This document shows positions 27,263 through 50,128 of a stretch of 64,000 nt of DNA, one piece after another. Numbering within the stretch: the stretch's first letter is position 1; every line of letters begins with the position of its first letter. The DNA lies in NCBI GenBank assembly GCA_031761405.1, contig JASEVX010000011.1, positions 65,885,217 through 65,949,216 of the forward strand, in the 5' to 3' direction. The notes below the pieces were generated by a model, which saw only the letters and a program-made list of their open reading frames with translations, did no database searches and was not told the origin of the DNA. The DNA comes from Serripes groenlandicus. Lineage: Eukaryota > Mollusca > Bivalvia > Cardiida > Cardiidae. Position numbers and translations under genes: made by a program.

Positions 27263-27288
<26 letters not shown>

Positions 27289-29935: not shown

Positions 29936-31271
29936 GAAACGAGGCGATCACTTCGCCGTACGCGCGGGTAAACGGCGGGAGTTACAACCACTCTCTTAAG
30001 GTGACGCACAACCTGGAAAAGCCTTGGTGTAGCTGATGAGACGCGGAGCATTCACTGTCCGAAGGGGGCAGGGTAGGGTGTAGCGCATTTAGGCAAGGGC
30101 AATGAAGTAGAGACTTGTAGGCCCTGTAAGGTTGTGGCAGGAGCTGGCAGGAGCTGGCAAGGTCCGGGACCACTTGTAAGATTAGATATGTCAACATGAT
30201 GTAGAACCAGCTATTTTATTGCAGAGACACAAGGAGTAAAAGCAAACTGTTGTGGCCCTCAGAACGCTTACATTTAAGAGCGAATTCTGAAAAGGAACAA
30301 TTCCTAAGGAGTTATACCTCCAAAACACTGTGAGAGTAGGAGTACGGCAGTCATACTACTCATTAGAAGATGCAGGGGTGTATTAGAATGTAAAATGTTC
30401 ACAACCTGAGGCGTCCTTAACGCCAAATGGCAATAAGGTCTTCAAAGATGAAGAGAGAGCATCGGCTCAACGGCCACCCAGGCGAGGAAAGGAACCAGGG
30501 AGAGTCAATGTCAAAGTAAATCAAAGCGCCAATGGCACTGTAGTGGCGATCGTATGGAAAATCCTGCAAAGTAACAAGCAGTATATCGGTGTAGGGCTTG
30601 CGATGACTCTGGTGCGGGTATATTTGAGAATGTATCAACCCTGCATCTTTTGACAGTAGAATAATGTTAGTTTGCCAGAATGTTGTCTTGGTGATTATTT
30701 AGTTACGTTCTGAAATTGGTCATGATGTGTTCAAAATTAGGCCATTCCAAAGTTATGAAAAATCTAGTTGGTATTCGATAGACTACCGTTTTAGCTCATT
30801 AGAATGACTATTTGTAATCTAAATTGTTTGGGTAATCACATGTTTATCACCAGGTCGTTAGGCCATATTAAGATAAAATATATTTTACACTTTAGAAATG
30901 ACTAAAGAAAGGAGAGAAAACAGTATCCATTAGTTTGGTGTTTGTTTCAATTATGTCCGATATTAAACAGGTCTGTTCAATTTAGTCCCTTCACATTGCA
31001 TGATTGAGGGTTGTCACAGTGTATTTATATGTCTCTGAGGTTGTTAAACTGCTTCGAATAATGTGAGTGCAAAAACAAACACAAAACATGCTCCAAAAGC
31101 ACAATTTCACTATTTGCCAAACTGTTTAATTTATGAAAATATAGGCATATATTATAATGCTAGATCTTCAAACTCAATTAGGCTACACTGTCAGCATTGA
31201 TTGCTAATTGACTCTAGAACGTGCAGACGTGTATACATAACGTGTGTACACACTGCCATCGTGTGTCCTTT
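29936..31271. other. Left interior flank of the giant element
   Basis: It opens with one CACTTCGCCG..CGCGCGGGTA block related to the 109-bp repeats at 49.65 kb. 30,369-30,649 is bounded by an inverted GATGCAGGG pair and is open on both strands for about 75-85 codons; no family is recognised. The rest shows no gene. The last bases before the tandem array are GTGTGTCCTTT. Confidence 0.4.
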
Positions 31272-31917
31272 GGTGGCAGGGGACACATTCGTATTTGGCC
31301 CCTGTCGATATTTCATATATTTGGAGTGTTTGAAAATGAATTGATTTTTTAACTATATAACAACATTTGGCATTGATTTCTTTATTGACATCTATCAATT
31401 GATGCATACAAAATGTGGAGAAAATACGAAAATGTGTATATGCTAGCTCATATCATGTTGAATAGCTTTTCAAGGGGAGGTCATTCTCAACATAATTTCC
31501 GAAGCTGTTGTGGAATGAAAATTCAGGTATTTCAAATAAGATTTTCTACTAGAAGAATACTGATGACATGGTATTTTGTATACATTTCCTGGTTATGCAT
31601 TGCTTGATTATTAAGTACGTGTGCTTCAATTTTCTCCTGCATGTTTCCAGAAAGTAAGGACATGATTAGAAAATATGCCGAAATAGTGTCATTTTAGCCC
31701 GTATTTTGGGTAGGTGGGCTAGAATACACAGGGTCTGGGAAAAAAATCAGTACTGTTGAGTTGCTAAAATGTTACCTGATTTTGAAATACTGTTATATGC
31801 CATATATTGAGATATAGTTTTAACATTATGATGGATGTTGTCTCTGAGAATTTCTCAAATAACATTTATCGGTGCGGACCTGCTGAAATGTTGCAAATTT
31901 AGGGGTCCCCTGCCACC
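31272..31917. mobile_element. L element, copy 1 (outer left)
   Basis: It starts GGTGGCAGGGGAC and ends GTCCCCTGCCACC, perfect 13-bp inverted termini. The inner side is followed by TTAA (31,918-31,921). The outer side is CCTTT rather than TTAA. Small open frames inside (62-67 codons) are not convincing genes. Confidence 0.8.
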
Positions 31918-32302
31918 TTAAGGGGAAAATTCTCAACTTTGAAATGCCTGGAAGATAAACTTTTCATGTTTTAACATGTTTCTTTATTTATATGGCAAAC
32001 AACATGTACAAACTGAGCTACCTGTGCATTGAATTTGCACCTGATATACACAAATAGGCAAGGGAGGTAGTAATATAATAAAAAAGCTGAAAATTACGGT
32101 AAAGAGTAATTCATACTTCATTGGTTTTTTTTTCATAAAATAACAATGTTTTGGTATACAACAAACTTATTTACAACATTTTCCACAAACATTTATCAAA
32201 ATATTCATTTAATGGATCCATTGTGTTAAAAGTCGGTTATGTTTATGCTTAATTATCGTGAAATACATCAATATTTTGTTTCTTTCTCTTATTTCAAGTA
32301 TA

Positions 32303-32680
32303 ATGGCTGCAATTTTCAAAACTTATGATATTACAAATGAAGAAAGAGGCTTCTTAAGCTCTGCTATCAATAAACGAACTAAGTTCGTGGAAAACTGCAA
32401 AATTTGGACAGGTCTGTGCACCTCAGATGGATACGGTTTACTCCGAATACAGTTTCGGGGTAAACGTATCAAAGTGAAAGTACACCGAATGGTATTCTTT
32501 CTGTCAAATTCACATGGGCTTACTCCACGGATGCATGTGTCCCATATTTGCCATAATAGGTTATGTCTGTCCCTTAATCACCTTTCATACGAGCCACAGC
32601 GTGTAAATAATAGCCGGTTGAGGTGTAAAAATGAAAGCGAATGTTGCGGCCATTATGCATTTGCTAGGTGCCTACTGTAA
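32303..32680 (+). CDS. His-Cys-box (I-PpoI-like) endonuclease, unit 1
   Basis: 125 aa from ATG 32,303 (an in-frame GTG lies upstream; TTATTTCAAG just before the ATG could be a splice acceptor). C32 and W35 open the domain, then GYGLL, then the H61-R62 pair. The catalytic part is SHICHNRLC...NHL...VNNSR: H81, C83, C88, H93 and N102 have exactly the spacing of I-PpoI H98, C100, C105, H110 and N119, i.e. general-base histidine, three zinc ligands and Mg-binding asparagine. A second zinc site C108, C115, H117 and C123 follows (the last ligand is shifted by two). Family role: site-specific DNA cleavage. It is convergent with the transposase gene, 186 bp apart. All key residues are intact, so the enzyme may be active. 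Confidence 0.8.
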   Translation: MAAIFKTYDITNEERGFLSSAINKRTKFVENCKIWTGLCTSDGYGLLRIQFRGKRIKVKVHRMVFFLSNSHGLTPRMHVSHICHNRLCLSLNHLSYEPQRVNNSRLRCKNESECCGHYAFARCLL

Positions 32681-32782
32681 GGTATGATAACACTGTTCGG
32701 TATAGTTCTGGTTCTCTTCAAACTGTTACGCTACATTTTTGCTTCCGTTCGTTTTCCTTTTCTGAAATTCAACACTTTGCGT

Positions 32783-32844
32783 GAACAGTGTAGACTGAGA
32801 TCAGCATGTGCGGATGTACATGCTGATCTTTGCCTACACTGTTC
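32783..32844. repeat. 62-bp hairpin between convergent genes, unit 1
   Basis: GAACAGTGTAG ... CTACACTGTTC (11 bp) encloses GATCAGCATGT ... ACATGCTGATC (11 bp), with short unpaired spacers. It lies between the 3' ends of the endonuclease and transposase genes. It could act as a shared 3' end or transcription barrier, or be a tiny MITE; a decayed relative appears near 55.55-55.65 kb. Confidence 0.8.
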
Positions 32845-32866
32845 AAAAATGCCAACTGTATAATTA

Positions 32867-34807
32867 TTACCCTAAATTAATACCATAAGAGTGATCTGCA
32901 CTTGCAACAGTTGTTGATTTGTATAGAGATTGTTTGAAAAGTTCTCTATTTGCAATTCGACGTCGTTTCGAGTATCTCGTACTTTTGTATTGAAAGGATC
33001 GTTTTCGGTTTGCATGGTACATTGAGATTTTCTCACAGTTTTTAGCATATTTGTAAATTGGATCATTCACACCTACTTCTAAGCCAACATGTTGTGCGAT
33101 AAGAAGCAGAGATATCCCTCTGCCTATGCTTGCGCCAAGCGAAGCAGCATGACACAGGCCCGGGAAATTTCTGCTCCATACCGTACTTTTTGGTGCAATT
33201 GAAAACAGTCTTGAGTGTAAATTTTCACACTTGTTTGTGTTGAATAAATTTTCAGTCTCTTTCAGCTGTTTCGCACCACAGTATTGTGAAATGACTTTAG
33301 AAATTATTTCTCTGTCTTTCGTTGACAGTTTCATGTACTGGCCATATGGTAGATATGTCATTTTGTAAGTTTTAAGGTGAGAAATGCATACTGCTGACAC
33401 CTTTCTGCAATTAGAATGGTTTCCGTGGAAACAGTCCAGTACGTTTGTTATGGCGTTTTCCGCACGGCTGTGATAATGGTCCCTGGATTTGGCGGTGACC
33501 CTCAAGCGGCTTAGTTCCATACGTATCCTATCTCGCAGTCTGGAAGCAAGAATTCTTGTATACTCCTTTCTGTTCTTTCCTGGAGGGGCTTTGATATTGG
33601 CTGCCCTGAGATGTTTGTGGAAGTTGCGCATGTTGTGGATGAAGCATTTGTAGTGATTTATATGCTTCTGGCGGTTGCTGTTAAGAGTCCGCATGGCTTT
33701 TGCGAGTGATTGGCTGCCATCAGTTGTAATGGACTGTACATTGAGAATGTTTTTGCTCTCTATATTTTTAATGGTTGCTTTAAGGAATGAGGTTTCAGCC
33801 TCATTTATGGTGTGATCACTACTGTAATTCTTCTTACATTTTCTACTCAAATGGTTACACAATTTTAAAGGACACAACTTGTTTCCAATTTGAATGTCTA
33901 CCGGCAACTGTTTTAAAGTTGTTTTTTCCACTGTAGGTGCAAAACACTGAGTGGCAGTTATACCGCCTGCCTGTGGCCGACTGGTGTAGGACACATCATA
34001 TTCCAAGTGAGTTCCATCTGTTCTTCCTGCAAGATTCTCAACTTGTTTGACATAGTTCTGATTCTTCTCTAACTGGAGCGTATTAATTTTTTCAACTTCA
34101 TCTGTGAGGGAGTTGAACTTTCTTTGCAGTCCTCGCTTGTCTGGTGCTTGAATATTTAAGCAGGCTAGCATAAGCTGAACGTCACTTATCCCCAATTTTG
34201 AACCGAGGACTGGCAGAACAAGGCAGTTGTTCAGGATCCCTGTGGTTTGTCCCTGTTTCTTAACACTATGAAACAGTGGCAGTTCAGTCGAAACAAAGTT
34301 GCAATTCTGGCATTTCAATTGTAGTGTTATGCAAAGGCCTTTCCGGTCAAGCACACTCAGTTTCAGAATTGCGTTGTCACAGTTATGTCCGTTAAGGCTA
34401 TTAAATGCATTTTCAAGCATTTGCAGATTGACAATGGCATTTTCATTTCTGACTGATGTACTGTCACTGACTTTTGATGAAAAATTTGTATTCTCTACAG
34501 TTGATGTTGATGTTGATGGTCTCAGCTTAAATGGTACAGTTGGTCCAGACTTTAAACCACTAGCATGAAGTACGTCTTGTGCAACTGATGTGTGAAGTCT
34601 CCTTAGTGAAGAAGTTACATCCTCAGCCTCAGTCGGTATATGTGAATATTCATCAGAAGGTCCAGGAATACTGTCAGATTCAGCACAAGTGTCACTAAAA
34701 CTACTCCACCTTTTCAAAGCATAGGTATTTCCCTTTTTAAAATATGTATATTTCCTCTTTTTATTAAGCCTGTAGCTGTGTTTATAATTCCTTTTAATAT
34801 CTCTCAT
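32867..34807 (-). CDS. Mutator-like DDE transposase, 646 aa, unit 1
   Basis: Start is ATG 34,805-34,807. The N-terminal 130 residues are basic then Ser/Thr-rich and probably disordered (DNA binding or nuclear import). C166/C169 form a CxxC in a small beta-rich region. The catalytic core has D271 in LEYDVSYTSRPQAGG, D363 in SITTDGSQSLAKAM and E528 in NTNKCENLHSR, the D-D-E arrangement of the Mutator-like transposase domain found in many invertebrate elements. A C/H cluster (CFHGNHSNC, 459-467) sits between D363 and E528, followed by the conserved-looking SRNFPGLCHAASLGAS block. The C-terminus is Lys/Arg-rich (SKRRRI), a likely nuclear localisation signal. No stop or frameshift. Role: cutting and joining transposon ends. 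Which ends it uses, L or the giant termini, is open. Confidence 0.75.
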   Translation of the reverse strand: MRDIKRNYKHSYRLNKKRKYTYFKKGNTYALKRWSSFSDTCAESDSIPGPSDEYSHIPTEAEDVTSSLRRLHTSVAQDVLHASGLKSGPTVPFKLRPSTSTSTVENTNFSSKVSDSTSVRNENAIVNLQMLENAFNSLNGHNCDNAILKLSVLDRKGLCITLQLKCQNCNFVSTELPLFHSVKKQGQTTGILNNCLVLPVLGSKLGISDVQLMLACLNIQAPDKRGLQRKFNSLTDEVEKINTLQLEKNQNYVKQVENLAGRTDGTHLEYDVSYTSRPQAGGITATQCFAPTVEKTTLKQLPVDIQIGNKLCPLKLCNHLSRKCKKNYSSDHTINEAETSFLKATIKNIESKNILNVQSITTDGSQSLAKAMRTLNSNRQKHINHYKCFIHNMRNFHKHLRAANIKAPPGKNRKEYTRILASRLRDRIRMELSRLRVTAKSRDHYHSRAENAITNVLDCFHGNHSNCRKVSAVCISHLKTYKMTYLPYGQYMKLSTKDREIISKVISQYCGAKQLKETENLFNTNKCENLHSRLFSIAPKSTVWSRNFPGLCHAASLGASIGRGISLLLIAQHVGLEVGVNDPIYKYAKNCEKISMYHANRKRSFQYKSTRYSKRRRIANRELFKQSLYKSTTVASADHSYGINLG

Positions 34808-35513
34808 GTTCACTAGTTGTAAGCAATACTAATTCTAGAAAACAATGGGTTGGACTGCATGTTTTATCATGAAATGGATTCTTATCAGGGATGTAGGGTC
34901 ATATTTCAGGTGTCTGGGTATTTGTGTTTGCAACTAAAACTATTTGGATACAGCTAGTTTGTGTGAGTAAGGCTTTGGGGTTTACCTCCCTTACATCTAC
35001 AGACTGAAAAGAGTGATGCTTGTGACAGGTATTTTGCTGTAGTTCCATTTCTGGGATATATTTTGAATTGAGATAACAATGGGATTTTTACTGTTATTAT
35101 GTCATACAGTAGTTGTTGAGACCAGTTTCTATTAATGCTTAAACTTCTAAGATAAGTACTTAAATGATATAAACTTTAAGCAAATTTATGATATTGATAA
35201 TTTCTAAGGTTTCAAATCTGGTTTCCTAAGTAAATTGAAGAAATTAAAGCATATTTAGGTCTAATATGGTTATAAATATTGACAACATGCATTGCATTCA
35301 TAAGAAAACTAGGGTTTTACATGCTGGATATTTTCATGCATTTTGGCTATATTTGGATTATTTCCCTTGTATTGGGTTACTTTTAGAAAAGGGTCATATT
35401 GCTAAAAGAAACACAGTTTTCTTTCTTTTTTTTTCTTTATTGTGTGTAAAATACATTAAATTATAAAATCACAGATGCACTAGTTATAGTTAAGCTGAAA
35501 ATAAAAACTTTAA
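34808..35513. other. Upstream region of transposase, unit 1
   Basis: About 700 bp of AT-rich non-coding DNA between the transposase start and the next L element, ending in TTAA (35,510-35,513). It should contain the transposase promoter; no TATA box stands out. Identical regions exist in units 2-4. Confidence 0.5.
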
Positions 35514-36159
35514 GGTGGCAGGGGACACATTCGTATTTGGCCCCTGTCGATATTTCATATATTTGGAGTGTTTGAAAATGAATTGATTTTTTAACTATAT
35601 AACAACATTTGGCATTGATTTCTTTATTGACATCTATCAATTGATGCATACAAAATGTGGAGAAAATACGAAAATGTGTATATGCTAGCTCATATCATGT
35701 TGAATAGCTTTTCAAGGGGAGGTCATTCTCAACATAATTTCCGAAGCTGTTGTGGAATGAAAATTCAGGTATTTCAAATAAGATTTTCTACTAGAAGAAT
35801 ACTGATGACATGGTATTTTGTATACATTTCCTGGTTATGCATTGCTTGATTATTAAGTACGTGTGCTTCAATTTTCTCCTGCATGTTTCCAGAAAGTAAG
35901 GACATGATTAGAAAATATGCCGAAATAGTGTCATTTTAGCCCGTATTTTGGGTAGGTGGGCTAGAATACACAGGGTCTGGGAAAAAAATCAGTACTGTTG
36001 AGTTGCTAAAATGTTACCTGATTTTGAAATACTGTTATATGCCATATATTGAGATATAGTTTTAACATTATGATGGATGTTGTCTCTGAGAATTTCTCAA
36101 ATAACATTTATCGGTGCGGACCTGCTGAAATGTTGCAAATTTAGGGGTCCCCTGCCACC
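35514..36159. mobile_element. L element, copy 2 (TTAA on both sides)
   Basis: TTAA-GGTGGCAGGGGAC ... GTCCCCTGCCACC-TTAA. A TTAA duplication and a GG-rich terminus are features of the Kolobok superfamily (established for that group); the assignment here is inference from ends only. Confidence 0.85.
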
Positions 36160-36544
36160 TTAAGGGGAAAATTCTCAACTTTGAAATGCCTGGAAGATAA
36201 ACTTTTCATGTTTTAACATGTTTCTTTATTTATATGGCAAACAACATGTACAAACTGAGCTACCTGTGCATTGAATTTGCACCTGATATACACAAATAGG
36301 CAAGGGAGGTAGTAATATAATAAAAAAGCTGAAAATTACGGTAAAGAGTAATTCATACTTCATTGGTTTTTTTTTCATAAAATAACAATGTTTTGGTATA
36401 CAACAAACTTATTTACAACATTTTCCACAAACATTTATCAAAATATTCATTTAATGGATCCATTGTGTTAAAAGTCGGTTATGTTTATGCTTAATTATCG
36501 TGAAATACATCAATATTTTGTTTCTTTCTCTTATTTCAAGTATA

Positions 36545-36922
36545 ATGGCTGCAATTTTCAAAACTTATGATATTACAAATGAAGAAAGAGGCTTCTTAAG
36601 CTCTGCTATCAATAAACGAACTAAGTTCGTGGAAAACTGCAAAATTTGGACAGGTCTGTGCACCTCAGATGGATACGGTTTACTCCGAATACAGTTTCGG
36701 GGTAAACGTATCAAAGTGAAAGTACACCGAATGGTATTCTTTCTGTCAAATTCACATGGGCTTACTCCACGGATGCATGTGTCCCATATTTGCCATAATA
36801 GGTTATGTCTGTCCCTTAATCACCTTTCATACGAGCCACAGCGTGTAAATAATAGCCGGTTGAGGTGTAAAAATGAAAGCGAATGTTGCGGCCATTATGC
36901 ATTTGCTAGGTGCCTACTGTAA
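36545..36922 (+). CDS. His-Cys-box endonuclease, unit 2
   Basis: Same 125-aa product as the gene at 32,303, residue for residue. All zinc and catalytic positions (H81, N102 and the two Cys/His sets) are present. Convergent with the transposase copy ending at 37,109. Confidence 0.8.
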   Translation: MAAIFKTYDITNEERGFLSSAINKRTKFVENCKIWTGLCTSDGYGLLRIQFRGKRIKVKVHRMVFFLSNSHGLTPRMHVSHICHNRLCLSLNHLSYEPQRVNNSRLRCKNESECCGHYAFARCLL

Positions 36923-37024
36923 GGTATGATAACACTGTTCGGTATAGTTCTGGTTCTCTTCAAACTGTTACGCTACATTTTTGCTTCCGTTCGTTTTCCT
37001 TTTCTGAAATTCAACACTTTGCGT

Positions 37025-37086
37025 GAACAGTGTAGACTGAGATCAGCATGTGCGGATGTACATGCTGATCTTTGCCTACACTGTTC
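37025..37086. repeat. Convergent-gene hairpin, unit 2
   Basis: Identical to the 62-bp hairpin at 32,783. Confidence 0.8.
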
Positions 37087-37108
37087 AAAAATGCCAACTG
37101 TATAATTA

Positions 37109-39049
37109 TTACCCTAAATTAATACCATAAGAGTGATCTGCACTTGCAACAGTTGTTGATTTGTATAGAGATTGTTTGAAAAGTTCTCTATTTGCAATTC
37201 GACGTCGTTTCGAGTATCTCGTACTTTTGTATTGAAAGGATCGTTTTCGGTTTGCATGGTACATTGAGATTTTCTCACAGTTTTTAGCATATTTGTAAAT
37301 TGGATCATTCACACCTACTTCTAAGCCAACATGTTGTGCGATAAGAAGCAGAGATATCCCTCTGCCTATGCTTGCGCCAAGCGAAGCAGCATGACACAGG
37401 CCCGGGAAATTTCTGCTCCATACCGTACTTTTTGGTGCAATTGAAAACAGTCTTGAGTGTAAATTTTCACACTTGTTTGTGTTGAATAAATTTTCAGTCT
37501 CTTTCAGCTGTTTCGCACCACAGTATTGTGAAATGACTTTAGAAATTATTTCTCTGTCTTTCGTTGACAGTTTCATGTACTGGCCATATGGTAGATATGT
37601 CATTTTGTAAGTTTTAAGGTGAGAAATGCATACTGCTGACACCTTTCTGCAATTAGAATGGTTTCCGTGGAAACAGTCCAGTACGTTTGTTATGGCGTTT
37701 TCCGCACGGCTGTGATAATGGTCCCTGGATTTGGCGGTGACCCTCAAGCGGCTTAGTTCCATACGTATCCTATCTCGCAGTCTGGAAGCAAGAATTCTTG
37801 TATACTCCTTTCTGTTCTTTCCTGGAGGGGCTTTGATATTGGCTGCCCTGAGATGTTTGTGGAAGTTGCGCATGTTGTGGATGAAGCATTTGTAGTGATT
37901 TATATGCTTCTGGCGGTTGCTGTTAAGAGTCCGCATGGCTTTTGCGAGTGATTGGCTGCCATCAGTTGTAATGGACTGTACATTGAGAATGTTTTTGCTC
38001 TCTATATTTTTAATGGTTGCTTTAAGGAATGAGGTTTCAGCCTCATTTATGGTGTGATCACTACTGTAATTCTTCTTACATTTTCTACTCAAATGGTTAC
38101 ACAATTTTAAAGGACACAACTTGTTTCCAATTTGAATGTCTACCGGCAACTGTTTTAAAGTTGTTTTTTCCACTGTAGGTGCAAAACACTGAGTGGCAGT
38201 TATACCGCCTGCCTGTGGCCGACTGGTGTAGGACACATCATATTCCAAGTGAGTTCCATCTGTTCTTCCTGCAAGATTCTCAACTTGTTTGACATAGTTC
38301 TGATTCTTCTCTAACTGGAGCGTATTAATTTTTTCAACTTCATCTGTGAGGGAGTTGAACTTTCTTTGCAGTCCTCGCTTGTCTGGTGCTTGAATATTTA
38401 AGCAGGCTAGCATAAGCTGAACGTCACTTATCCCCAATTTTGAACCGAGGACTGGCAGAACAAGGCAGTTGTTCAGGATCCCTGTGGTTTGTCCCTGTTT
38501 CTTAACACTATGAAACAGTGGCAGTTCAGTCGAAACAAAGTTGCAATTCTGGCATTTCAATTGTAGTGTTATGCAAAGGCCTTTCCGGTCAAGCACACTC
38601 AGTTTCAGAATTGCGTTGTCACAGTTATGTCCGTTAAGGCTATTAAATGCATTTTCAAGCATTTGCAGATTGACAATGGCATTTTCATTTCTGACTGATG
38701 TACTGTCACTGACTTTTGATGAAAAATTTGTATTCTCTACAGTTGATGTTGATGTTGATGGTCTCAGCTTAAATGGTACAGTTGGTCCAGACTTTAAACC
38801 ACTAGCATGAAGTACGTCTTGTGCAACTGATGTGTGAAGTCTCCTTAGTGAAGAAGTTACATCCTCAGCCTCAGTCGGTATATGTGAATATTCATCAGAA
38901 GGTCCAGGAATACTGTCAGATTCAGCACAAGTGTCACTAAAACTACTCCACCTTTTCAAAGCATAGGTATTTCCCTTTTTAAAATATGTATATTTCCTCT
39001 TTTTATTAAGCCTGTAGCTGTGTTTATAATTCCTTTTAATATCTCTCAT
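37109..39049 (-). CDS. Mutator-like DDE transposase, unit 2
   Basis: Identical 646-aa product (ATG at 39,047-39,049), with D271, D363 and E528 intact. The one base change seen in this unit (39,499) lies upstream of the gene and does not touch the protein. Confidence 0.75.
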   Translation of the reverse strand: MRDIKRNYKHSYRLNKKRKYTYFKKGNTYALKRWSSFSDTCAESDSIPGPSDEYSHIPTEAEDVTSSLRRLHTSVAQDVLHASGLKSGPTVPFKLRPSTSTSTVENTNFSSKVSDSTSVRNENAIVNLQMLENAFNSLNGHNCDNAILKLSVLDRKGLCITLQLKCQNCNFVSTELPLFHSVKKQGQTTGILNNCLVLPVLGSKLGISDVQLMLACLNIQAPDKRGLQRKFNSLTDEVEKINTLQLEKNQNYVKQVENLAGRTDGTHLEYDVSYTSRPQAGGITATQCFAPTVEKTTLKQLPVDIQIGNKLCPLKLCNHLSRKCKKNYSSDHTINEAETSFLKATIKNIESKNILNVQSITTDGSQSLAKAMRTLNSNRQKHINHYKCFIHNMRNFHKHLRAANIKAPPGKNRKEYTRILASRLRDRIRMELSRLRVTAKSRDHYHSRAENAITNVLDCFHGNHSNCRKVSAVCISHLKTYKMTYLPYGQYMKLSTKDREIISKVISQYCGAKQLKETENLFNTNKCENLHSRLFSIAPKSTVWSRNFPGLCHAASLGASIGRGISLLLIAQHVGLEVGVNDPIYKYAKNCEKISMYHANRKRSFQYKSTRYSKRRRIANRELFKQSLYKSTTVASADHSYGINLG

Positions 39050-39755
39050 GTTCACTAGTTGTAAGCAATACTAATTCTAGAAAACAATGGGTTGGACTGC
39101 ATGTTTTATCATGAAATGGATTCTTATCAGGGATGTAGGGTCATATTTCAGGTGTCTGGGTATTTGTGTTTGCAACTAAAACTATTTGGATACAGCTAGT
39201 TTGTGTGAGTAAGGCTTTGGGGTTTACCTCCCTTACATCTACAGACTGAAAAGAGTGATGCTTGTGACAGGTATTTTGCTGTAGTTCCATTTCTGGGATA
39301 TATTTTGAATTGAGATAACAATGGGATTTTTACTGTTATTATGTCATACAGTAGTTGTTGAGACCAGTTTCTATTAATGCTTAAACTTCTAAGATAAGTA
39401 CTTAAATGATATAAACTTTAAGCAAATTTATGATATTGATAATTTCTAAGGTTTCAAATCTGGTTTCCTAAGTAAATTGAAGAAATTAAAGCATATTTGG
39501 GTCTAATATGGTTATAAATATTGACAACATGCATTGCATTCATAAGAAAACTAGGGTTTTACATGCTGGATATTTTCATGCATTTTGGCTATATTTGGAT
39601 TATTTCCCTTGTATTGGGTTACTTTTAGAAAAGGGTCATATTGCTAAAAGAAACACAGTTTTCTTTCTTTTTTTTTCTTTATTGTGTGTAAAATACATTA
39701 AATTATAAAATCACAGATGCACTAGTTATAGTTAAGCTGAAAATAAAAACTTTAA

Positions 39756-40401
39756 GGTGGCAGGGGACACATTCGTATTTGGCCCCTGTCGATATTTCAT
39801 ATATTTGGAGTGTTTGAAAATGAATTGATTTTTTAACTATATAACAACATTTGGCATTGATTTCTTTATTGACATCTATCAATTGATGCATACAAAATGT
39901 GGAGAAAATACGAAAATGTGTATATGCTAGCTCATATCATGTTGAATAGCTTTTCAAGGGGAGGTCATTCTCAACATAATTTCCGAAGCTGTTGTGGAAT
40001 GAAAATTCAGGTATTTCAAATAAGATTTTCTACTAGAAGAATACTGATGACATGGTATTTTGTATACATTTCCTGGTTATGCATTGCTTGATTATTAAGT
40101 ACGTGTGCTTCAATTTTCTCCTGCATGTTTCCAGAAAGTAAGGACATGATTAGAAAATATGCCGAAATAGTGTCATTTTAGCCCGTATTTTGGGTAGGTG
40201 GGCTAGAATACACAGGGTCTGGGAAAAAAATCAGTACTGTTGAGTTGCTAAAATGTTACCTGATTTTGAAATACTGTTATATGCCATATATTGAGATATA
40301 GTTTTAACATTATGATGGATGTTGTCTCTGAGAATTTCTCAAATAACATTTATCGGTGCGGACCTGCTGAAATGTTGCAAATTTAGGGGTCCCCTGCCAC
40401 C
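39756..40401. mobile_element. L element, copy 3
   Basis: Same 13-bp inverted termini and TTAA on both sides as copy 2. Confidence 0.85.
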
Positions 40402-40786
40402 TTAAGGGGAAAATTCTCAACTTTGAAATGCCTGGAAGATAAACTTTTCATGTTTTAACATGTTTCTTTATTTATATGGCAAACAACATGTACAAACTGA
40501 GCTACCTGTGCATTGAATTTGCACCTGATATACACAAATAGGCAAGGGAGGTAGTAATATAATAAAAAAGCTGAAAATTACGGTAAAGAGTAATTCATAC
40601 TTCATTGGTTTTTTTTTCATAAAATAACAATGTTTTGGTATACAACAAACTTATTTACAACATTTTCCACAAACATTTATCAAAATATTCATTTAATGGA
40701 TCCATTGTGTTAAAAGTCGGTTATGTTTATGCTTAATTATCGTGAAATACATCAATATTTTGTTTCTTTCTCTTATTTCAAGTATA

Positions 40787-41164
40787 ATGGCTGCAATTTT
40801 CAAAACTTATGATATTACAAATGAAGAAAGAGGCTTCTTAAGCTCTGCTATCAATAAACGAACTAAGTTCGTGGAAAACTGCAAAATTTGGACAGGTCTG
40901 TGCACCTCAGATGGATACGGTTTACTCCGAATACAGTTTCGGGGTAAACGTATCAAAGTGAAAGTACACCGAATGGTATTCTTTCTGTCAAATTCACATG
41001 GGCTTACTCCACGGATGCATGTGTCCCATATTTGCCATAATAGGTTATGTCTGTCCCTTAATCACCTTTCATACGAGCCACAGCGTGTAAATAATAGCCG
41101 GTTGAGGTGTAAAAATGAAAGCGAATGTTGCGGCCATTATGCATTTGCTAGGTGCCTACTGTAA
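40787..41164 (+). CDS. His-Cys-box endonuclease, unit 3
   Basis: Identical to the unit 1 product; intact. Confidence 0.8.
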   Translation: MAAIFKTYDITNEERGFLSSAINKRTKFVENCKIWTGLCTSDGYGLLRIQFRGKRIKVKVHRMVFFLSNSHGLTPRMHVSHICHNRLCLSLNHLSYEPQRVNNSRLRCKNESECCGHYAFARCLL

Positions 41165-41266
41165 GGTATGATAACACTGTTCGGTATAGTTCTGGTTCTC
41201 TTCAAACTGTTACGCTACATTTTTGCTTCCGTTCGTTTTCCTTTTCTGAAATTCAACACTTTGCGT

Positions 41267-41328
41267 GAACAGTGTAGACTGAGATCAGCATGTGCGGATG
41301 TACATGCTGATCTTTGCCTACACTGTTC
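41267..41328. repeat. Convergent-gene hairpin, unit 3
   Basis: Identical to the hairpin at 32,783. Confidence 0.8.
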
Positions 41329-41350
41329 AAAAATGCCAACTGTATAATTA

Positions 41351-43291
41351 TTACCCTAAATTAATACCATAAGAGTGATCTGCACTTGCAACAGTTGTTG
41401 ATTTGTATAGAGATTGTTTGAAAAGTTCTCTATTTGCAATTCGACGTCGTTTCGAGTATCTCGTACTTTTGTATTGAAAGGATCGTTTTCGGTTTGCATG
41501 GTACATTGAGATTTTCTCACAGTTTTTAGCATATTTGTAAATTGGATCATTCACACCTACTTCTAAGCCAACATGTTGTGCGATAAGAAGCAGAGATATC
41601 CCTCTGCCTATGCTTGCGCCAAGCGAAGCAGCATGACACAGGCCCGGGAAATTTCTGCTCCATACCGTACTTTTTGGTGCAATTGAAAACAGTCTTGAGT
41701 GTAAATTTTCACACTTGTTTGTGTTGAATAAATTTTCAGTCTCTTTCAGCTGTTTCGCACCACAGTATTGTGAAATGACTTTAGAAATTATTTCTCTGTC
41801 TTTCGTTGACAGTTTCATGTACTGGCCATATGGTAGATATGTCATTTTGTAAGTTTTAAGGTGAGAAATGCATACTGCTGACACCTTTCTGCAATTAGAA
41901 TGGTTTCCGTGGAAACAGTCCAGTACGTTTGTTATGGCGTTTTCCGCACGGCTGTGATAATGGTCCCTGGATTTGGCGGTGACCCTCAAGCGGCTTAGTT
42001 CCATACGTATCCTATCTCGCAGTCTGGAAGCAAGAATTCTTGTATACTCCTTTCTGTTCTTTCCTGGAGGGGCTTTGATATTGGCTGCCCTGAGATGTTT
42101 GTGGAAGTTGCGCATGTTGTGGATGAAGCATTTGTAGTGATTTATATGCTTCTGGCGGTTGCTGTTAAGAGTCCGCATGGCTTTTGCGAGTGATTGGCTG
42201 CCATCAGTTGTAATGGACTGTACATTGAGAATGTTTTTGCTCTCTATATTTTTAATGGTTGCTTTAAGGAATGAGGTTTCAGCCTCATTTATGGTGTGAT
42301 CACTACTGTAATTCTTCTTACATTTTCTACTCAAATGGTTACACAATTTTAAAGGACACAACTTGTTTCCAATTTGAATGTCTACCGGCAACTGTTTTAA
42401 AGTTGTTTTTTCCACTGTAGGTGCAAAACACTGAGTGGCAGTTATACCGCCTGCCTGTGGCCGACTGGTGTAGGACACATCATATTCCAAGTGAGTTCCA
42501 TCTGTTCTTCCTGCAAGATTCTCAACTTGTTTGACATAGTTCTGATTCTTCTCTAACTGGAGCGTATTAATTTTTTCAACTTCATCTGTGAGGGAGTTGA
42601 ACTTTCTTTGCAGTCCTCGCTTGTCTGGTGCTTGAATATTTAAGCAGGCTAGCATAAGCTGAACGTCACTTATCCCCAATTTTGAACCGAGGACTGGCAG
42701 AACAAGGCAGTTGTTCAGGATCCCTGTGGTTTGTCCCTGTTTCTTAACACTATGAAACAGTGGCAGTTCAGTCGAAACAAAGTTGCAATTCTGGCATTTC
42801 AATTGTAGTGTTATGCAAAGGCCTTTCCGGTCAAGCACACTCAGTTTCAGAATTGCGTTGTCACAGTTATGTCCGTTAAGGCTATTAAATGCATTTTCAA
42901 GCATTTGCAGATTGACAATGGCATTTTCATTTCTGACTGATGTACTGTCACTGACTTTTGATGAAAAATTTGTATTCTCTACAGTTGATGTTGATGTTGA
43001 TGGTCTCAGCTTAAATGGTACAGTTGGTCCAGACTTTAAACCACTAGCATGAAGTACGTCTTGTGCAACTGATGTGTGAAGTCTCCTTAGTGAAGAAGTT
43101 ACATCCTCAGCCTCAGTCGGTATATGTGAATATTCATCAGAAGGTCCAGGAATACTGTCAGATTCAGCACAAGTGTCACTAAAACTACTCCACCTTTTCA
43201 AAGCATAGGTATTTCCCTTTTTAAAATATGTATATTTCCTCTTTTTATTAAGCCTGTAGCTGTGTTTATAATTCCTTTTAATATCTCTCAT
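41351..43291 (-). CDS. Mutator-like DDE transposase, unit 3
   Basis: Identical 646-aa product, ATG at 43,289-43,291; catalytic residues intact. Confidence 0.75.
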   Translation of the reverse strand: MRDIKRNYKHSYRLNKKRKYTYFKKGNTYALKRWSSFSDTCAESDSIPGPSDEYSHIPTEAEDVTSSLRRLHTSVAQDVLHASGLKSGPTVPFKLRPSTSTSTVENTNFSSKVSDSTSVRNENAIVNLQMLENAFNSLNGHNCDNAILKLSVLDRKGLCITLQLKCQNCNFVSTELPLFHSVKKQGQTTGILNNCLVLPVLGSKLGISDVQLMLACLNIQAPDKRGLQRKFNSLTDEVEKINTLQLEKNQNYVKQVENLAGRTDGTHLEYDVSYTSRPQAGGITATQCFAPTVEKTTLKQLPVDIQIGNKLCPLKLCNHLSRKCKKNYSSDHTINEAETSFLKATIKNIESKNILNVQSITTDGSQSLAKAMRTLNSNRQKHINHYKCFIHNMRNFHKHLRAANIKAPPGKNRKEYTRILASRLRDRIRMELSRLRVTAKSRDHYHSRAENAITNVLDCFHGNHSNCRKVSAVCISHLKTYKMTYLPYGQYMKLSTKDREIISKVISQYCGAKQLKETENLFNTNKCENLHSRLFSIAPKSTVWSRNFPGLCHAASLGASIGRGISLLLIAQHVGLEVGVNDPIYKYAKNCEKISMYHANRKRSFQYKSTRYSKRRRIANRELFKQSLYKSTTVASADHSYGINLG

Positions 43292-43997
43292 GTTCACTAG
43301 TTGTAAGCAATACTAATTCTAGAAAACAATGGGTTGGACTGCATGTTTTATCATGAAATGGATTCTTATCAGGGATGTAGGGTCATATTTCAGGTGTCTG
43401 GGTATTTGTGTTTGCAACTAAAACTATTTGGATACAGCTAGTTTGTGTGAGTAAGGCTTTGGGGTTTACCTCCCTTACATCTACAGACTGAAAAGAGTGA
43501 TGCTTGTGACAGGTATTTTGCTGTAGTTCCATTTCTGGGATATATTTTGAATTGAGATAACAATGGGATTTTTACTGTTATTATGTCATACAGTAGTTGT
43601 TGAGACCAGTTTCTATTAATGCTTAAACTTCTAAGATAAGTACTTAAATGATATAAACTTTAAGCAAATTTATGATATTGATAATTTCTAAGGTTTCAAA
43701 TCTGGTTTCCTAAGTAAATTGAAGAAATTAAAGCATATTTAGGTCTAATATGGTTATAAATATTGACAACATGCATTGCATTCATAAGAAAACTAGGGTT
43801 TTACATGCTGGATATTTTCATGCATTTTGGCTATATTTGGATTATTTCCCTTGTATTGGGTTACTTTTAGAAAAGGGTCATATTGCTAAAAGAAACACAG
43901 TTTTCTTTCTTTTTTTTTCTTTATTGTGTGTAAAATACATTAAATTATAAAATCACAGATGCACTAGTTATAGTTAAGCTGAAAATAAAAACTTTAA

Positions 43998-44643
43998 GGT
44001 GGCAGGGGACACATTCGTATTTGGCCCCTGTCGATATTTCATATATTTGGAGTGTTTGAAAATGAATTGATTTTTTAACTATATAACAACATTTGGCATT
44101 GATTTCTTTATTGACATCTATCAATTGATGCATACAAAATGTGGAGAAAATACGAAAATGTGTATATGCTAGCTCATATCATGTTGAATAGCTTTTCAAG
44201 GGGAGGTCATTCTCAACATAATTTCCGAAGCTGTTGTGGAATGAAAATTCAGGTATTTCAAATAAGATTTTCTACTAGAAGAATACTGATGACATGGTAT
44301 TTTGTATACATTTCCTGGTTATGCATTGCTTGATTATTAAGTACGTGTGCTTCAATTTTCTCCTGCATGTTTCCAGAAAGTAAGGACATGATTAGAAAAT
44401 ATGCCGAAATAGTGTCATTTTAGCCCGTATTTTGGGTAGGTGGGCTAGAATACACAGGGTCTGGGAAAAAAATCAGTACTGTTGAGTTGCTAAAATGTTA
44501 CCTGATTTTGAAATACTGTTATATGCCATATATTGAGATATAGTTTTAACATTATGATGGATGTTGTCTCTGAGAATTTCTCAAATAACATTTATCGGTG
44601 CGGACCTGCTGAAATGTTGCAAATTTAGGGGTCCCCTGCCACC
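43998..44643. mobile_element. L element, copy 4
   Basis: Same termini, TTAA on both sides. Confidence 0.85.
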
Positions 44644-45028
44644 TTAAGGGGAAAATTCTCAACTTTGAAATGCCTGGAAGATAAACTTTTCATGTTTTAA
44701 CATGTTTCTTTATTTATATGGCAAACAACATGTACAAACTGAGCTACCTGTGCATTGAATTTGCACCTGATATACACAAATAGGCAAGGGAGGTAGTAAT
44801 ATAATAAAAAAGCTGAAAATTACGGTAAAGAGTAATTCATACTTCATTGGTTTTTTTTTCATAAAATAACAATGTTTTGGTATACAACAAACTTATTTAC
44901 AACATTTTCCACAAACATTTATCAAAATATTCATTTAATGGATCCATTGTGTTAAAAGTCGGTTATGTTTATGCTTAATTATCGTGAAATACATCAATAT
45001 TTTGTTTCTTTCTCTTATTTCAAGTATA

Positions 45029-45406
45029 ATGGCTGCAATTTTCAAAACTTATGATATTACAAATGAAGAAAGAGGCTTCTTAAGCTCTGCTATCAATAAA
45101 CGAACTAAGTTCGTGGAAAACTGCAAAATTTGGACAGGTCTGTGCACCTCAGATGGATACGGTTTACTCCGAATACAGTTTCGGGGTAAACGTATCAAAG
45201 TGAAAGTACACCGAATGGTATTCTTTCTGTCAAATTCACATGGGCTTACTCCACGGATGCATGTGTCCCATATTTGCCATAATAGGTTATGTCTGTCCCT
45301 TAATCACCTTTCATACGAGCCACAGCGTGTAAATAATAGCCGGTTGAGGTGTAAAAATGAAAGCGAATGTTGCGGCCATTATGCATTTGCTAGGTGCCTA
45401 CTGTAA
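45029..45406 (+). CDS. His-Cys-box endonuclease, unit 4
   Basis: Identical to the unit 1 product; intact. Confidence 0.8.
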   Translation: MAAIFKTYDITNEERGFLSSAINKRTKFVENCKIWTGLCTSDGYGLLRIQFRGKRIKVKVHRMVFFLSNSHGLTPRMHVSHICHNRLCLSLNHLSYEPQRVNNSRLRCKNESECCGHYAFARCLL

Positions 45407-45508
45407 GGTATGATAACACTGTTCGGTATAGTTCTGGTTCTCTTCAAACTGTTACGCTACATTTTTGCTTCCGTTCGTTTTCCTTTTCTGAAATTCAACA
45501 CTTTGCGT

Positions 45509-45570
45509 GAACAGTGTAGACTGAGATCAGCATGTGCGGATGTACATGCTGATCTTTGCCTACACTGTTC
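45509..45570. repeat. Convergent-gene hairpin, unit 4
   Basis: Identical to the hairpin at 32,783. Confidence 0.8.
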
Positions 45571-45592
45571 AAAAATGCCAACTGTATAATTA

Positions 45593-47533
45593 TTACCCTA
45601 AATTAATACCATAAGAGTGATCTGCACTTGCAACAGTTGTTGATTTGTATAGAGATTGTTTGAAAAGTTCTCTATTTGCAATTCGACGTCGTTTCGAGTA
45701 TCTCGTACTTTTGTATTGAAAGGATCGTTTTCGGTTTGCATGGTACATTGAGATTTTCTCACAGTTTTTAGCATATTTGTAAATTGGATCATTCACACCT
45801 ACTTCTAAGCCAACATGTTGTGCGATAAGAAGCAGAGATATCCCTCTGCCTATGCTTGCGCCAAGCGAAGCAGCATGACACAGGCCCGGGAAATTTCTGC
45901 TCCATACCGTACTTTTTGGTGCAATTGAAAACAGTCTTGAGTGTAAATTTTCACACTTGTTTGTGTTGAATAAATTTTCAGTCTCTTTCAGCTGTTTCGC
46001 ACCACAGTATTGTGAAATGACTTTAGAAATTATTTCTCTGTCTTTCGTTGACAGTTTCATGTACTGGCCATATGGTAGATATGTCATTTTGTAAGTTTTA
46101 AGGTGAGAAATGCATACTGCTGACACCTTTCTGCAATTAGAATGGTTTCCGTGGAAACAGTCCAGTACGTTTGTTATGGCGTTTTCCGCACGGCTGTGAT
46201 AATGGTCCCTGGATTTGGCGGTGACCCTCAAGCGGCTTAGTTCCATACGTATCCTATCTCGCAGTCTGGAAGCAAGAATTCTTGTATACTCCTTTCTGTT
46301 CTTTCCTGGAGGGGCTTTGATATTGGCTGCCCTGAGATGTTTGTGGAAGTTGCGCATGTTGTGGATGAAGCATTTGTAGTGATTTATATGCTTCTGGCGG
46401 TTGCTGTTAAGAGTCCGCATGGCTTTTGCGAGTGATTGGCTGCCATCAGTTGTAATGGACTGTACATTGAGAATGTTTTTGCTCTCTATATTTTTAATGG
46501 TTGCTTTAAGGAATGAGGTTTCAGCCTCATTTATGGTGTGATCACTACTGTAATTCTTCTTACATTTTCTACTCAAATGGTTACACAATTTTAAAGGACA
46601 CAACTTGTTTCCAATTTGAATGTCTACCGGCAACTGTTTTAAAGTTGTTTTTTCCACTGTAGGTGCAAAACACTGAGTGGCAGTTATACCGCCTGCCTGT
46701 GGCCGACTGGTGTAGGACACATCATATTCCAAGTGAGTTCCATCTGTTCTTCCTGCAAGATTCTCAACTTGTTTGACATAGTTCTGATTCTTCTCTAACT
46801 GGAGCGTATTAATTTTTTCAACTTCATCTGTGAGGGAGTTGAACTTTCTTTGCAGTCCTCGCTTGTCTGGTGCTTGAATATTTAAGCAGGCTAGCATAAG
46901 CTGAACGTCACTTATCCCCAATTTTGAACCGAGGACTGGCAGAACAAGGCAGTTGTTCAGGATCCCTGTGGTTTGTCCCTGTTTCTTAACACTATGAAAC
47001 AGTGGCAGTTCAGTCGAAACAAAGTTGCAATTCTGGCATTTCAATTGTAGTGTTATGCAAAGGCCTTTCCGGTCAAGCACACTCAGTTTCAGAATTGCGT
47101 TGTCACAGTTATGTCCGTTAAGGCTATTAAATGCATTTTCAAGCATTTGCAGATTGACAATGGCATTTTCATTTCTGACTGATGTACTGTCACTGACTTT
47201 TGATGAAAAATTTGTATTCTCTACAGTTGATGTTGATGTTGATGGTCTCAGCTTAAATGGTACAGTTGGTCCAGACTTTAAACCACTAGCATGAAGTACG
47301 TCTTGTGCAACTGATGTGTGAAGTCTCCTTAGTGAAGAAGTTACATCCTCAGCCTCAGTCGGTATATGTGAATATTCATCAGAAGGTCCAGGAATACTGT
47401 CAGATTCAGCACAAGTGTCACTAAAACTACTCCACCTTTTCAAAGCATAGGTATTTCCCTTTTTAAAATATGTATATTTCCTCTTTTTATTAAGCCTGTA
47501 GCTGTGTTTATAATTCCTTTTAATATCTCTCAT
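45593..47533 (-). CDS. Mutator-like DDE transposase, unit 4
   Basis: Identical 646-aa product, ATG at 47,531-47,533; catalytic residues intact. Last coding copy of the array. Confidence 0.75.
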   Translation of the reverse strand: MRDIKRNYKHSYRLNKKRKYTYFKKGNTYALKRWSSFSDTCAESDSIPGPSDEYSHIPTEAEDVTSSLRRLHTSVAQDVLHASGLKSGPTVPFKLRPSTSTSTVENTNFSSKVSDSTSVRNENAIVNLQMLENAFNSLNGHNCDNAILKLSVLDRKGLCITLQLKCQNCNFVSTELPLFHSVKKQGQTTGILNNCLVLPVLGSKLGISDVQLMLACLNIQAPDKRGLQRKFNSLTDEVEKINTLQLEKNQNYVKQVENLAGRTDGTHLEYDVSYTSRPQAGGITATQCFAPTVEKTTLKQLPVDIQIGNKLCPLKLCNHLSRKCKKNYSSDHTINEAETSFLKATIKNIESKNILNVQSITTDGSQSLAKAMRTLNSNRQKHINHYKCFIHNMRNFHKHLRAANIKAPPGKNRKEYTRILASRLRDRIRMELSRLRVTAKSRDHYHSRAENAITNVLDCFHGNHSNCRKVSAVCISHLKTYKMTYLPYGQYMKLSTKDREIISKVISQYCGAKQLKETENLFNTNKCENLHSRLFSIAPKSTVWSRNFPGLCHAASLGASIGRGISLLLIAQHVGLEVGVNDPIYKYAKNCEKISMYHANRKRSFQYKSTRYSKRRRIANRELFKQSLYKSTTVASADHSYGINLG

Positions 47534-48239
47534 GTTCACTAGTTGTAAGCAATACTAATTCTAGAAAACAATGGGTTGGACTGCATGTTTTATCATGAAA
47601 TGGATTCTTATCAGGGATGTAGGGTCATATTTCAGGTGTCTGGGTATTTGTGTTTGCAACTAAAACTATTTGGATACAGCTAGTTTGTGTGAGTAAGGCT
47701 TTGGGGTTTACCTCCCTTACATCTACAGACTGAAAAGAGTGATGCTTGTGACAGGTATTTTGCTGTAGTTCCATTTCTGGGATATATTTTGAATTGAGAT
47801 AACAATGGGATTTTTACTGTTATTATGTCATACAGTAGTTGTTGAGACCAGTTTCTATTAATGCTTAAACTTCTAAGATAAGTACTTAAATGATATAAAC
47901 TTTAAGCAAATTTATGATATTGATAATTTCTAAGGTTTCAAATCTGGTTTCCTAAGTAAATTGAAGAAATTAAAGCATATTTAGGTCTAATATGGTTATA
48001 AATATTGACAACATGCATTGCATTCATAAGAAAACTAGGGTTTTACATGCTGGATATTTTCATGCATTTTGGCTATATTTGGATTATTTCCCTTGTATTG
48101 GGTTACTTTTAGAAAAGGGTCATATTGCTAAAAGAAACACAGTTTTCTTTCTTTTTTTTTCTTTATTGTGTGTAAAATACATTAAATTATAAAATCACAG
48201 ATGCACTAGTTATAGTTAAGCTGAAAATAAAAACTTTAA

Positions 48240-48885
48240 GGTGGCAGGGGACACATTCGTATTTGGCCCCTGTCGATATTTCATATATTTGGAGTGTTTG
48301 AAAATGAATTGATTTTTTAACTATATAACAACATTTGGCATTGATTTCTTTATTGACATCTATCAATTGATGCATACAAAATGTGGAGAAAATACGAAAA
48401 TGTGTATATGCTAGCTCATATCATGTTGAATAGCTTTTCAAGGGGAGGTCATTCTCAACATAATTTCCGAAGCTGTTGTGGAATGAAAATTCAGGTATTT
48501 CAAATAAGATTTTCTACTAGAAGAATACTGATGACATGGTATTTTGTATACATTTCCTGGTTATGCATTGCTTGATTATTAAGTACGTGTGCTTCAATTT
48601 TCTCCTGCATGTTTCCAGAAAGTAAGGACATGATTAGAAAATATGCCGAAATAGTGTCATTTTAGCCCGTATTTTGGGTAGGTGGGCTAGAATACACAGG
48701 GTCTGGGAAAAAAATCAGTACTGTTGAGTTGCTAAAATGTTACCTGATTTTGAAATACTGTTATATGCCATATATTGAGATATAGTTTTAACATTATGAT
48801 GGATGTTGTCTCTGAGAATTTCTCAAATAACATTTATCGGTGCGGACCTGCTGAAATGTTGCAAATTTAGGGGTCCCCTGCCACC
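48240..48885. mobile_element. L element, copy 5 (outer right)
   Basis: TTAA on the inner (left) side, 13-bp inverted termini intact. The outer side reads TAAACC, not TTAA. Together with the CCTTT left of copy 1, the two flanks rejoin to a sequence with a TTAA core. Confidence 0.8.
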
Positions 48886-49650
48886 TAAACCTTTGTAAAC
48901 CAGTCTTATTATCTAGACGCTTTCATATATTTAAACAAGTACAAAATAAAGCGTTTATAATATTGAGATTTACAAGCTTTTCTGGTTTTTGGTCTCGCGA
49001 GCTATTTATAGAACCTTTTGGAATTTCCAGATTTGAGTATCACCAGAGTTGTCGTTATTTGCAAGGCAGAACGCGCAATGATATTTATTATCTGCCAAAT
49101 CATGACGAAGATAATCAGAGTACAACCAACTCCTGCCGAATCAGGTTAAAGGTCAAAAGGTTACGGTTGACTACAGTAAAAATAAAACGAGGCACAGGAG
49201 TATCATGATACTCTGCATAGCGTACCCAAGACGCCCGATGATATTTATTATCTGCCCAAACATGAAGAAAGATAATATGTAAATAGTTTAACTCTATTTA
49301 GATATTTTCTCGATAAATCTCAAATATTAGTACCAATCCGGTATCAAAGTAGCACTAACATTATCATTATTAATCGTGTGCCTGCATCACTGATGGAACT
49401 ATATATATATATATGGGGTTTAACGGAAGTGAGTAAATTGCCTTTGCAGAAATATCCAACCGATTGTTCAAATACGACTATATAATTTTTTTTTCGTTGT
49501 TGTTGTTTTGGTAGCACTGTGGCGATTGTCAACCAATCGCCACAAAAATGTCTCTAGTAGGGGAAATCTTAGGCAACGTAACTGGACTAACTAGCCTACA
49601 CGGGACTATATAATTTCGTGAAATGATCATAGGCTCAAAAATCTTCTACT
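48886..49650. other. Right interior flank of the giant element
   Basis: No gene recognised. A phrase GATATTTATTATCTGCC with AAGATAAT downstream occurs twice (about 49,077 and 49,239), and a short (AT)n run lies at about 49,400. Confidence 0.4.
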
Positions 49651-50030
49651 AGCACTTTGCCGTCAGCGCGGGTAGACGACGGGACGTGCCTTGTATTATA
49701 TGCGGGCCCGGCTCACATTTCCCCTACTAGCAGCGGAGTGCTCACTTAACACAAGGCCTAGCACTTGGCCGTTAGCGCGGGTAGACGGCGGGACCTGCCT
49801 TATATCATATGCGGCCCCGGCTCATATTTTCCCTACCAGCGGTGGAATGCTAGCGCAAAACAAGGCCAGCACTTCGCCGTCAGCGCGGGTTGACTGCTGG
49901 ACCTGCATTATAGCACACGCGGCCCCGGCTCACATTTACCATACTATCAGAGAAGTGCTCGCCTGAAAAACAAGGCCAGCACTTCGCCGTCAGCGCGGGT
50001 AGACGGCGGGACCTACCGTATAGGGTATGT
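49651..50030 (+). repeat. 109-bp subterminal repeats, about 3.5 copies
   Basis: AGCACTT.GCCGTCAGCGCGGGTAGACGGCGGGACC begins at 49,651, 49,760, 49,868 and 49,978; between them GCGGCCCCGGCTCACATTT and GGAGTGCTCGC recur. GC-rich compared with its surroundings. One related copy lies at 29.9 kb in the same orientation. Confidence 0.85.
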
Positions 50031-50128
50031 GTCCCACTCCTGTAAGAATTTATTTTTGTTCCACTCCCGTGATAAGGGCCTGTAAACACGCGGCAGACTC
50101 GGATAGAAATCCGCTTTAAGGCCAGTTT
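50031..50128 (+). repeat. Right subterminal module, single copy
   Basis: GTTCCACTCCCGTGATAAGG, GCCTGTAAACACGCGGCAGA, CTCGGATAGAAATCCGCTTT, AAGGCC: the same block and orientation as the left modules at 29.44-29.93 kb. Confidence 0.8.

What the first reader, a model, noticed from the sequence alone, without database searches (positions are those of the whole stretch)
31272..48885. Four-fold tandem nuclease/transposase cassette, a candidate new mobile system
A 4,242-bp unit with a convergent His-Cys-box endonuclease and Mutator-like DDE transposase is repeated four times at exact period. Both genes keep all key residues in every copy. A DNA-cutting homing-type nuclease paired with a DDE transposase in an animal element is unusual. 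Possible roles for the nuclease are opening a target, driving copy-number increase of the cassette by break-induced recombination between units, or cutting replication intermediates.
Basis: partly seen in the sequence, partly recalled or inferred. Interest (0 to 1): 0.92.

Follow-up and report, generated by a model that had tools for sequence, protein, structure and literature searches.

The report
Tandem array of a nuclease-carrying transposon
This is four head-to-tail copies of a published kind of animal jumping gene (KolobokP) that encodes a transposase and a predicted DNA-cutting enzyme; the cutting enzyme likely helps the copies multiply side by side, so it is another example of a known system rather than a new one.

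The parts
31272..31917 (+). LTDR copy 1 (646 bp), ends GGTGGCAGGGGAC...GTCCCCTGCCACC; left flank CCTTT
35514..36159 (+). LTDR copy 2, flanked by TTAA on both sides
39756..40401 (+). LTDR copy 3
   Evidence: units identical here; TTAA at both ends
43998..44643 (+). LTDR copy 4
48240..48885 (+). LTDR copy 5, closes the array; right flank TAAACC
31918..35513 (+). INT copy 1 (3,596 bp, begins and ends with TTAA)
36160..39755 (+). INT copy 2 (carries the one differing base of the array)
40402..43997 (+). INT copy 3
44644..48239 (+). INT copy 4
32303..32680 (+). His-Me (His-Cys box) nuclease, 125 aa; repeated at 36545-36922, 40787-41164, 45029-45406
32867..34807 (-). Kolobok DDD/E transposase, 646 aa; D271 D363 E528 (assigned by position), CFIH 388-391, two Cys/His clusters; repeated at 37109-39049, 41351-43291, 45593-47533
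32782..32845 (.). hairpin-forming inverted repeat between the two convergent stop codons
   Evidence: INT 864-927 matches the interiors of other copies inverted; sequence
27804..51440 (.). host of the array: foldback element with 53-bp-repeat inverted arms and a 9-bp near-duplication GGAATTATT / GAAATTATT at its ends (context, not part of KolobokP)

Best explanation
This is a multimer, (LTDR-INT)4-LTDR, of a KolobokP-type Kolobok DNA transposon that grew from a single founder unit, likely by unequal recombination between its 646-bp direct repeats, which its own I-PpoI-like nuclease is predicted to provoke by cutting element DNA. The transposase is predicted to act on the short inverted ends that bound each LTDR, so it could move a whole LTDR-INT-LTDR unit or a lone LTDR; INT-INT junctions sharing a single TTAA in a sister array (C1518) show that LTDRs are lost precisely. 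Shown here: the architecture, the ends, intact genes, the predicted fold's match to I-PpoI, the founder signature, and other arrays, monomers and solo LTDRs in the same genome. Inferred: that the proteins are made and active, that the nuclease cuts within the element, and that its cut starts the multiplication.
Against: No cut site has been shown. Several arrays carry nuclease frames with stops: C14 (3 units), C1330 (8), C954 (4), C680 (9), C1010 (5), C757 (6) (the last three by six-frame matches only, where an intron or frame edge could mimic a stop), so in those any nuclease action must come from other copies or is not needed. The C1518 array has units as different from each other (7-8 substitutions) as from other loci. 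The outer flanks of the window array (TTT / TAA) do not match, unlike 10 of 17 two-ended insertions with identical 3-4-bp flanks.
Confidence: 0.6

Rival explanations
1. A circular LTDR-INT intermediate, made by recombination or by the transposase, integrates into an LTDR and so adds units; the nuclease, if it acts, opens the circle or the target LTDR.
For: Proposed as an alternative in PMC9587614. The mixed C1518 array, whose units differ by 7-8 substitutions, fits integration of circles from different copies better than in-place duplication.
Against: The window and C446 arrays carry array-private substitutions in every unit, which needs the circle to come from the same locus. The pattern search for two abutted ends did not complete, so such junctions were not tested.
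Confidence: 0.25
2. Passive unequal crossing-over between long direct repeats, with no role for the nuclease.
For: 646-bp identical direct repeats should be enough for unequal exchange; runs of 3, 4 and 8 nucleases of a derivative with stopped nucleases exist (C14, C954, C1330).
Against: An open nuclease frame in all sixteen full-length matches of 98-100% identity, and its active site kept in 88 aligned sequences, suggest that it does something useful to the element.
Confidence: 0.3
3. Assembly artefact: one unit was duplicated by the assembler.
For: The units are almost identical, so copy number is hard to assemble.
Against: One unit carries a private base; arrays of this and other families lie on many contigs with differing unit lengths and LTDR-less steps; multimers are published.
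Confidence: 0.07
4. One reading: a new, unrelated nuclease/Mutator-type system.
For: Pfam calls the transposase 'Mutator-like'.
Against: The features tested fit KolobokP, apart from this array's own outer flanks (membership table); the paper describes this gene pair and architecture.
Confidence: 0.02

Closest known systems
KolobokP (Kolobok superfamily; Kojima & Bao 2022, PMC9587614)
   Same: LTDR-INT-LTDR layout, LTDR in the ~660-bp class, own short TIRs with 5'-RR/YY-3', DDD/E transposase with a convergent I-PpoI-like nuclease, solo LTDRs, (LTDR-INT)n-LTDR multimers, LTDR-less INT-INT joints.
   Different: No structural difference found. Whether this exact family is among the 228 published ones could not be checked (supplements not readable here).
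I-PpoI, His-Cys box homing endonuclease of a Physarum group I intron
   Different: Encoded by a transposon, shorter (125 against 162-163 aa), no intron; target unknown.
Mutator (MuDR) transposons
   Same: Pfam family name PF20700 'Mutator'; both superfamilies share the C/DxxH signature (PMC9587614).
   Different: 3-4-bp AT-rich target duplications rather than 9-11 bp (the latter recalled), long direct repeats, nuclease partner.
Bacterial composite / IS26-type pseudo-composite transposons
   Same: Works like: a central region between two copies of a mobile end module.
   Different: Here no gene was found in the ends; both genes lie in the centre (comparison made in PMC9587614).

Membership tests
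KolobokP | Internal region between two long terminal direct repeats | tested here: met
   Five 646-bp LTDRs around four INTs; monomers on C1301, C2, C125
KolobokP | LTDR length near 450 or 660 bp | tested here: met
   646 bp
KolobokP | LTDR has its own 11-18-bp TIR, termini 5'-RR and YY-3' | tested here: met
   13-bp GGTGGCAGGGGAC / GTCCCCTGCCACC
KolobokP | 3-5-bp target duplications, family level | tested here: met
   10 of 17 two-ended insertions with identical 3-4-bp flanks (TAA, TTA, TTAA, TTT, AAA), one more with 7 bp; 6 without, the window among them; 6 of 23 insertions truncated and not counted
KolobokP | Target duplication at this very array | tested here: inconclusive
   Left flank TTT, right flank TAA; empty-site search not answered
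KolobokP | DDD/E transposase with C/DxxH motif and zinc fingers after the first D and between second D and E | tested here: met
   D271, C312/C317/H319/C324, D363, C388xxH391, C459/H464/C467/C474 invariant in 16 aligned sequences; E528 in the 13 rows that reach it. Catalytic roles assigned by position
KolobokP | Convergent His-Me finger nuclease of the I-PpoI group | tested here: met
KolobokP | Transposase falls inside the KolobokP clade of a Kolobok tree | not tested
   Reference Kolobok sequences were not at hand
His-Cys box endonuclease | Catalytic His and Asn and two Cys/His zinc clusters | tested here: met
   H81, N102, C32, C83, C88 in 88 of 88 rows; H93 in 87 of 88; C108, C114, H117, C123 in 87 of 87, one row gapped there. 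Roles by alignment with I-PpoI and partly recalled
His-Cys box endonuclease | Site-specific double-strand cutting | not testable with these tools
   -
Mutator (MuDR) | 9-11-bp target duplication (recalled) | tested here: not met
   3-4 bp where found in this family, 7 bp once

The most novel reading that the evidence does not exclude
The transposon end is itself the homing site: the nuclease still reads an I-PpoI-like half-site, TTAA-GGTGGC, so that each LTDR boundary (and above all two abutted ends, GCCACC-TTAA-GGTGGC, a perfect palindrome) is a built-in cut site that drives array growth, while the one-base change from TTAAGGTAGC spares the host's ribosomal DNA. The element would be an intron-homing enzyme turned into a copy-number engine for a DNA transposon.
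Probability: 0.15. Interest if true: 0.7.

Novelty: new member of a known kind. Interest (0 to 1): 0.35.

Why it matters
It settles that a striking-looking cassette belongs to a published lineage and gives a clean case for testing that lineage's open question, how its multimers form. Arrays with private founder substitutions next to a mixed array, and runs of up to 13 nucleases in one genome, allow recombination models to be compared. If the end sequence proves to be the cut site, it would show how a homing enzyme was recruited to multiply a DNA transposon.

Tried and rejected
Rejected: a new system (published); independent successive insertions as the origin of the window array (array-private substitutions shared by its four units); true Mutator membership (3-4-bp duplications). 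The PDB sequence hits to TAL effectors are sums of tiny repeat matches, with no stretch passing alone, and were discarded. A first structure model from 4 sequences was useless (pLDDT 37) and was replaced by one from 88 sequences picked by hand from the 120 listed (274 matched), mostly leaving out shorter or lower-coverage rows.

Led nowhere: relatives in viral contigs and in bacterial and archaeal genomes, none confirmed. The test of other families' ends failed for lack of letters; a pattern for I-PpoI-like ends with TTAA on ~450-bp LTDRs gave 0 matches in the genome, control 0, which speaks against such ends being general; a pattern is limited to 600 bases and so cannot span the 646-bp LTDR, hence no positive control. 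The genome-wide transposase search, the search for abutted ends and the empty-site search did not complete. A paper on I-PpoI's target contacts was not held.

Full report
What is there. A self-comparison of the window finds a strict 4,242-bp period from 31272, four units long, with a fifth copy of the unit's first part at the end. Across the four units there is one differing base, in unit 2. Reading the junctions shows why the array ends part-way through a fifth unit: the first 646 bp of the unit is a module of its own, with ends GGTGGCAGGGGAC...GTCCCCTGCCACC, and inside the array it is flanked by TTAA (eight inner ends confirmed). The remaining 3,596 bp begins and ends with TTAA and holds two convergent genes. 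The array is (LTDR-INT)4-LTDR.

What it is. A paper search led to Kojima and Bao 2022 (PMC9587614), of which I read parts 1-5 of 6. It describes KolobokP: LTDR-INT-LTDR, LTDRs near 450 or 660 bp with 11-18-bp TIRs, a DDD/E transposase, a convergent I-PpoI-like nuclease, solo LTDRs, (LTDR-INT)n-LTDR multimers, and INT-INT joints with a short deletion that leaves one copy of the flanking tetranucleotide. The features tested here fit, except that this array's two outer flanks (TTT, TAA) are not a clean duplication; the tree position was not tested. It is the only paper of the held library with the word KolobokP.

Other copies in the same genome. The window lies in a 1.76-Gb genome. Forty LTDR matches were scored of 346 candidates; those outside the window were fetched, and the 40 fall into 23 insertions: multimers at the window (n=4), C446 (n=3), C14 (n=3, a non-autonomous derivative) and C1518 (LTDR-INT-INT-LTDR-INT-INT-LTDR, one INT internally deleted); monomers on C1301, C2, C125, C1074, C58 and C963; seven solo LTDRs; six truncated. 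Ten of the 17 two-ended insertions have identical 3-4-bp flanks, one has 7 bp, six do not, the window among the six. At the C1518 INT-INT joints the interiors share a single TTAA, i.e. the LTDR left precisely. A nuclease search scored 150 of 413 candidates. Related families form long runs: 13 nucleases on C1074 spaced 4,175 (7 times) or 3,703-3,713 bp (5 times); 9 on C680 (five steps of about 4,157, three of about 3,501, alternating after the first step); 8 on C1330 (2,913 six times, 2,256 once); 4 on C954 at about 2,262. The differences (462, 656, 657 bp) are the size of an LTDR plus a few bases, so the short steps are read, without letters, as lost LTDRs. The alternation on C680 suggests that a two-unit block with one LTDR already lost was itself multiplied (inference). 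Of these runs only C1074 (and C1, 37% identical) have nuclease matches without stops; C1330, C954, C14, C680, C1010 and C757 have one or more stops in the matched frame.

How it multiplied. The four window interiors share three substitutions absent from the nine other interiors compared (C1301, three of C1518, three of C446, C2, C125), two of them adjacent, and differ among themselves by 0-1, against 6-13 to the others except C125 (37-38). C446 behaves alike: three private substitutions and a 6-bp deletion in all three units, 0-1 differences within. C1518 does not: its three full units differ by 7-8. So the window and C446 arrays grew from one founder each; C1518 was put together from different copies or is older. 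Founder growth speaks against independent successive insertions; it does not separate unequal crossing-over from re-integration of a circle made at the same locus. The nuclease frame is open in all sixteen full-length matches of 98-100% identity and stopped in the non-autonomous derivative, which nevertheless forms arrays: the nuclease may act in trans or may not be needed.

A lead on the cut site. The I-PpoI site is CTCTCTTAAGGTAGC (PMC6294500, one passage seen), and I-PpoI leaves TTAA 3' overhangs (PMC9587614). In the 4,242-bp unit the two best matches to the half-site TTAAGGTAGC (9 of 10) are the two LTDR ends with their TTAA, and the LTDR-INT joint ties with one other place as best match to the full site (11 of 15); the other I-PpoI half, TTAAGAGAG, has no good match (7 of 9 at best). 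Of 1,076 TTAA occurrences in the window, both strands counted, 13 are followed by at least 5 of the 6 bases GGTAGC; eight are the array's own LTDR ends, leaving 5 of 1,068, about 0.5%, as background. Two LTDR ends joined through TTAA would form a perfect palindrome. The paper says that abutted TIRs could be a symmetric target but its main text holds no 'GGT' (0 occurrences), so it prints no such end there; its supplements were not readable here. R48 and Q50 of this nuclease align with R61 and Q63 of I-PpoI, two residues said to help position DNA there (PMC11325842, passages seen); but Q50 varies among relatives. That ribosomal DNA of the host holds TTAAGGTAGC is recalled, not tested. Against the lead: the match is one coincidence, since both ends share one TIR; the pattern for such ends on ~450-bp LTDRs has no match in the genome; the letters needed to test other families could not be had.

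Verdict. A real and well-preserved array, correctly spotted, belonging to a published lineage. In the one paper found, the mechanism of multiplication is a proposal awaiting experiment, and it stays open here; recombination between LTDRs, with a likely push from the nuclease, fits best.

Noticed in passing
27804-51440: The array sits inside a ~23.6-kb foldback element (about 6 kb without the array): inverted arms of a 53-bp tandem repeat, ends AGGTGTGTGAAGTTAGCACGT, 9-bp near-duplication GGAATTATT/GAAATTATT. Outside the array, the only ORF of 100 aa or more listed within it lies in its tandem repeats (29381-29824).
   Followed up: partly
31112-31271: This interior stretch of the foldback element has 1,132 first-look candidates in the genome; the 40 scored are all 100% identical over 160 bp: apparently a very abundant, young element.
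   Followed up: partly
G000 C1074:114053634-114101717, C680:208362-239931, C1330, C757, C1010, C1:210203533-210224716: Long arrays of other KolobokP-like nucleases, up to 13 in a run, with regular shorter steps read as lost LTDRs; C680, C1330, C757 and C1010 matches contain stops.
   Followed up: partly
L019, L020, L021, L018, L024: A non-autonomous derivative (LTDR about 90-95% identical, shortened interior, stopped nuclease and transposase) that still forms monomers and a trimer.
   Followed up: partly
32782-32845: A hairpin-forming inverted repeat between the two convergent stop codons; C2 and C125 copies carry about 300 extra bp at this spot.
   Followed up: no
L010 9566-9569; L026 and L029 LTDR joints: Some LTDR-INT joints carry TTAATTAA instead of TTAA, perhaps an excision or re-insertion footprint.
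   Followed up: no
1078-2403 and 17707-17808: A 51-bp tandem repeat (26 copies) with two inverted copies 15 kb away, another possible foldback pair.
   Followed up: no
3877-8090: A 93-copy array of a 45-bp repeat with strong strand skew.
   Followed up: no
27260-27453 and 61505-61695: A 194-bp inverted repeat pair, 94% identical, 34 kb apart.
   Followed up: no
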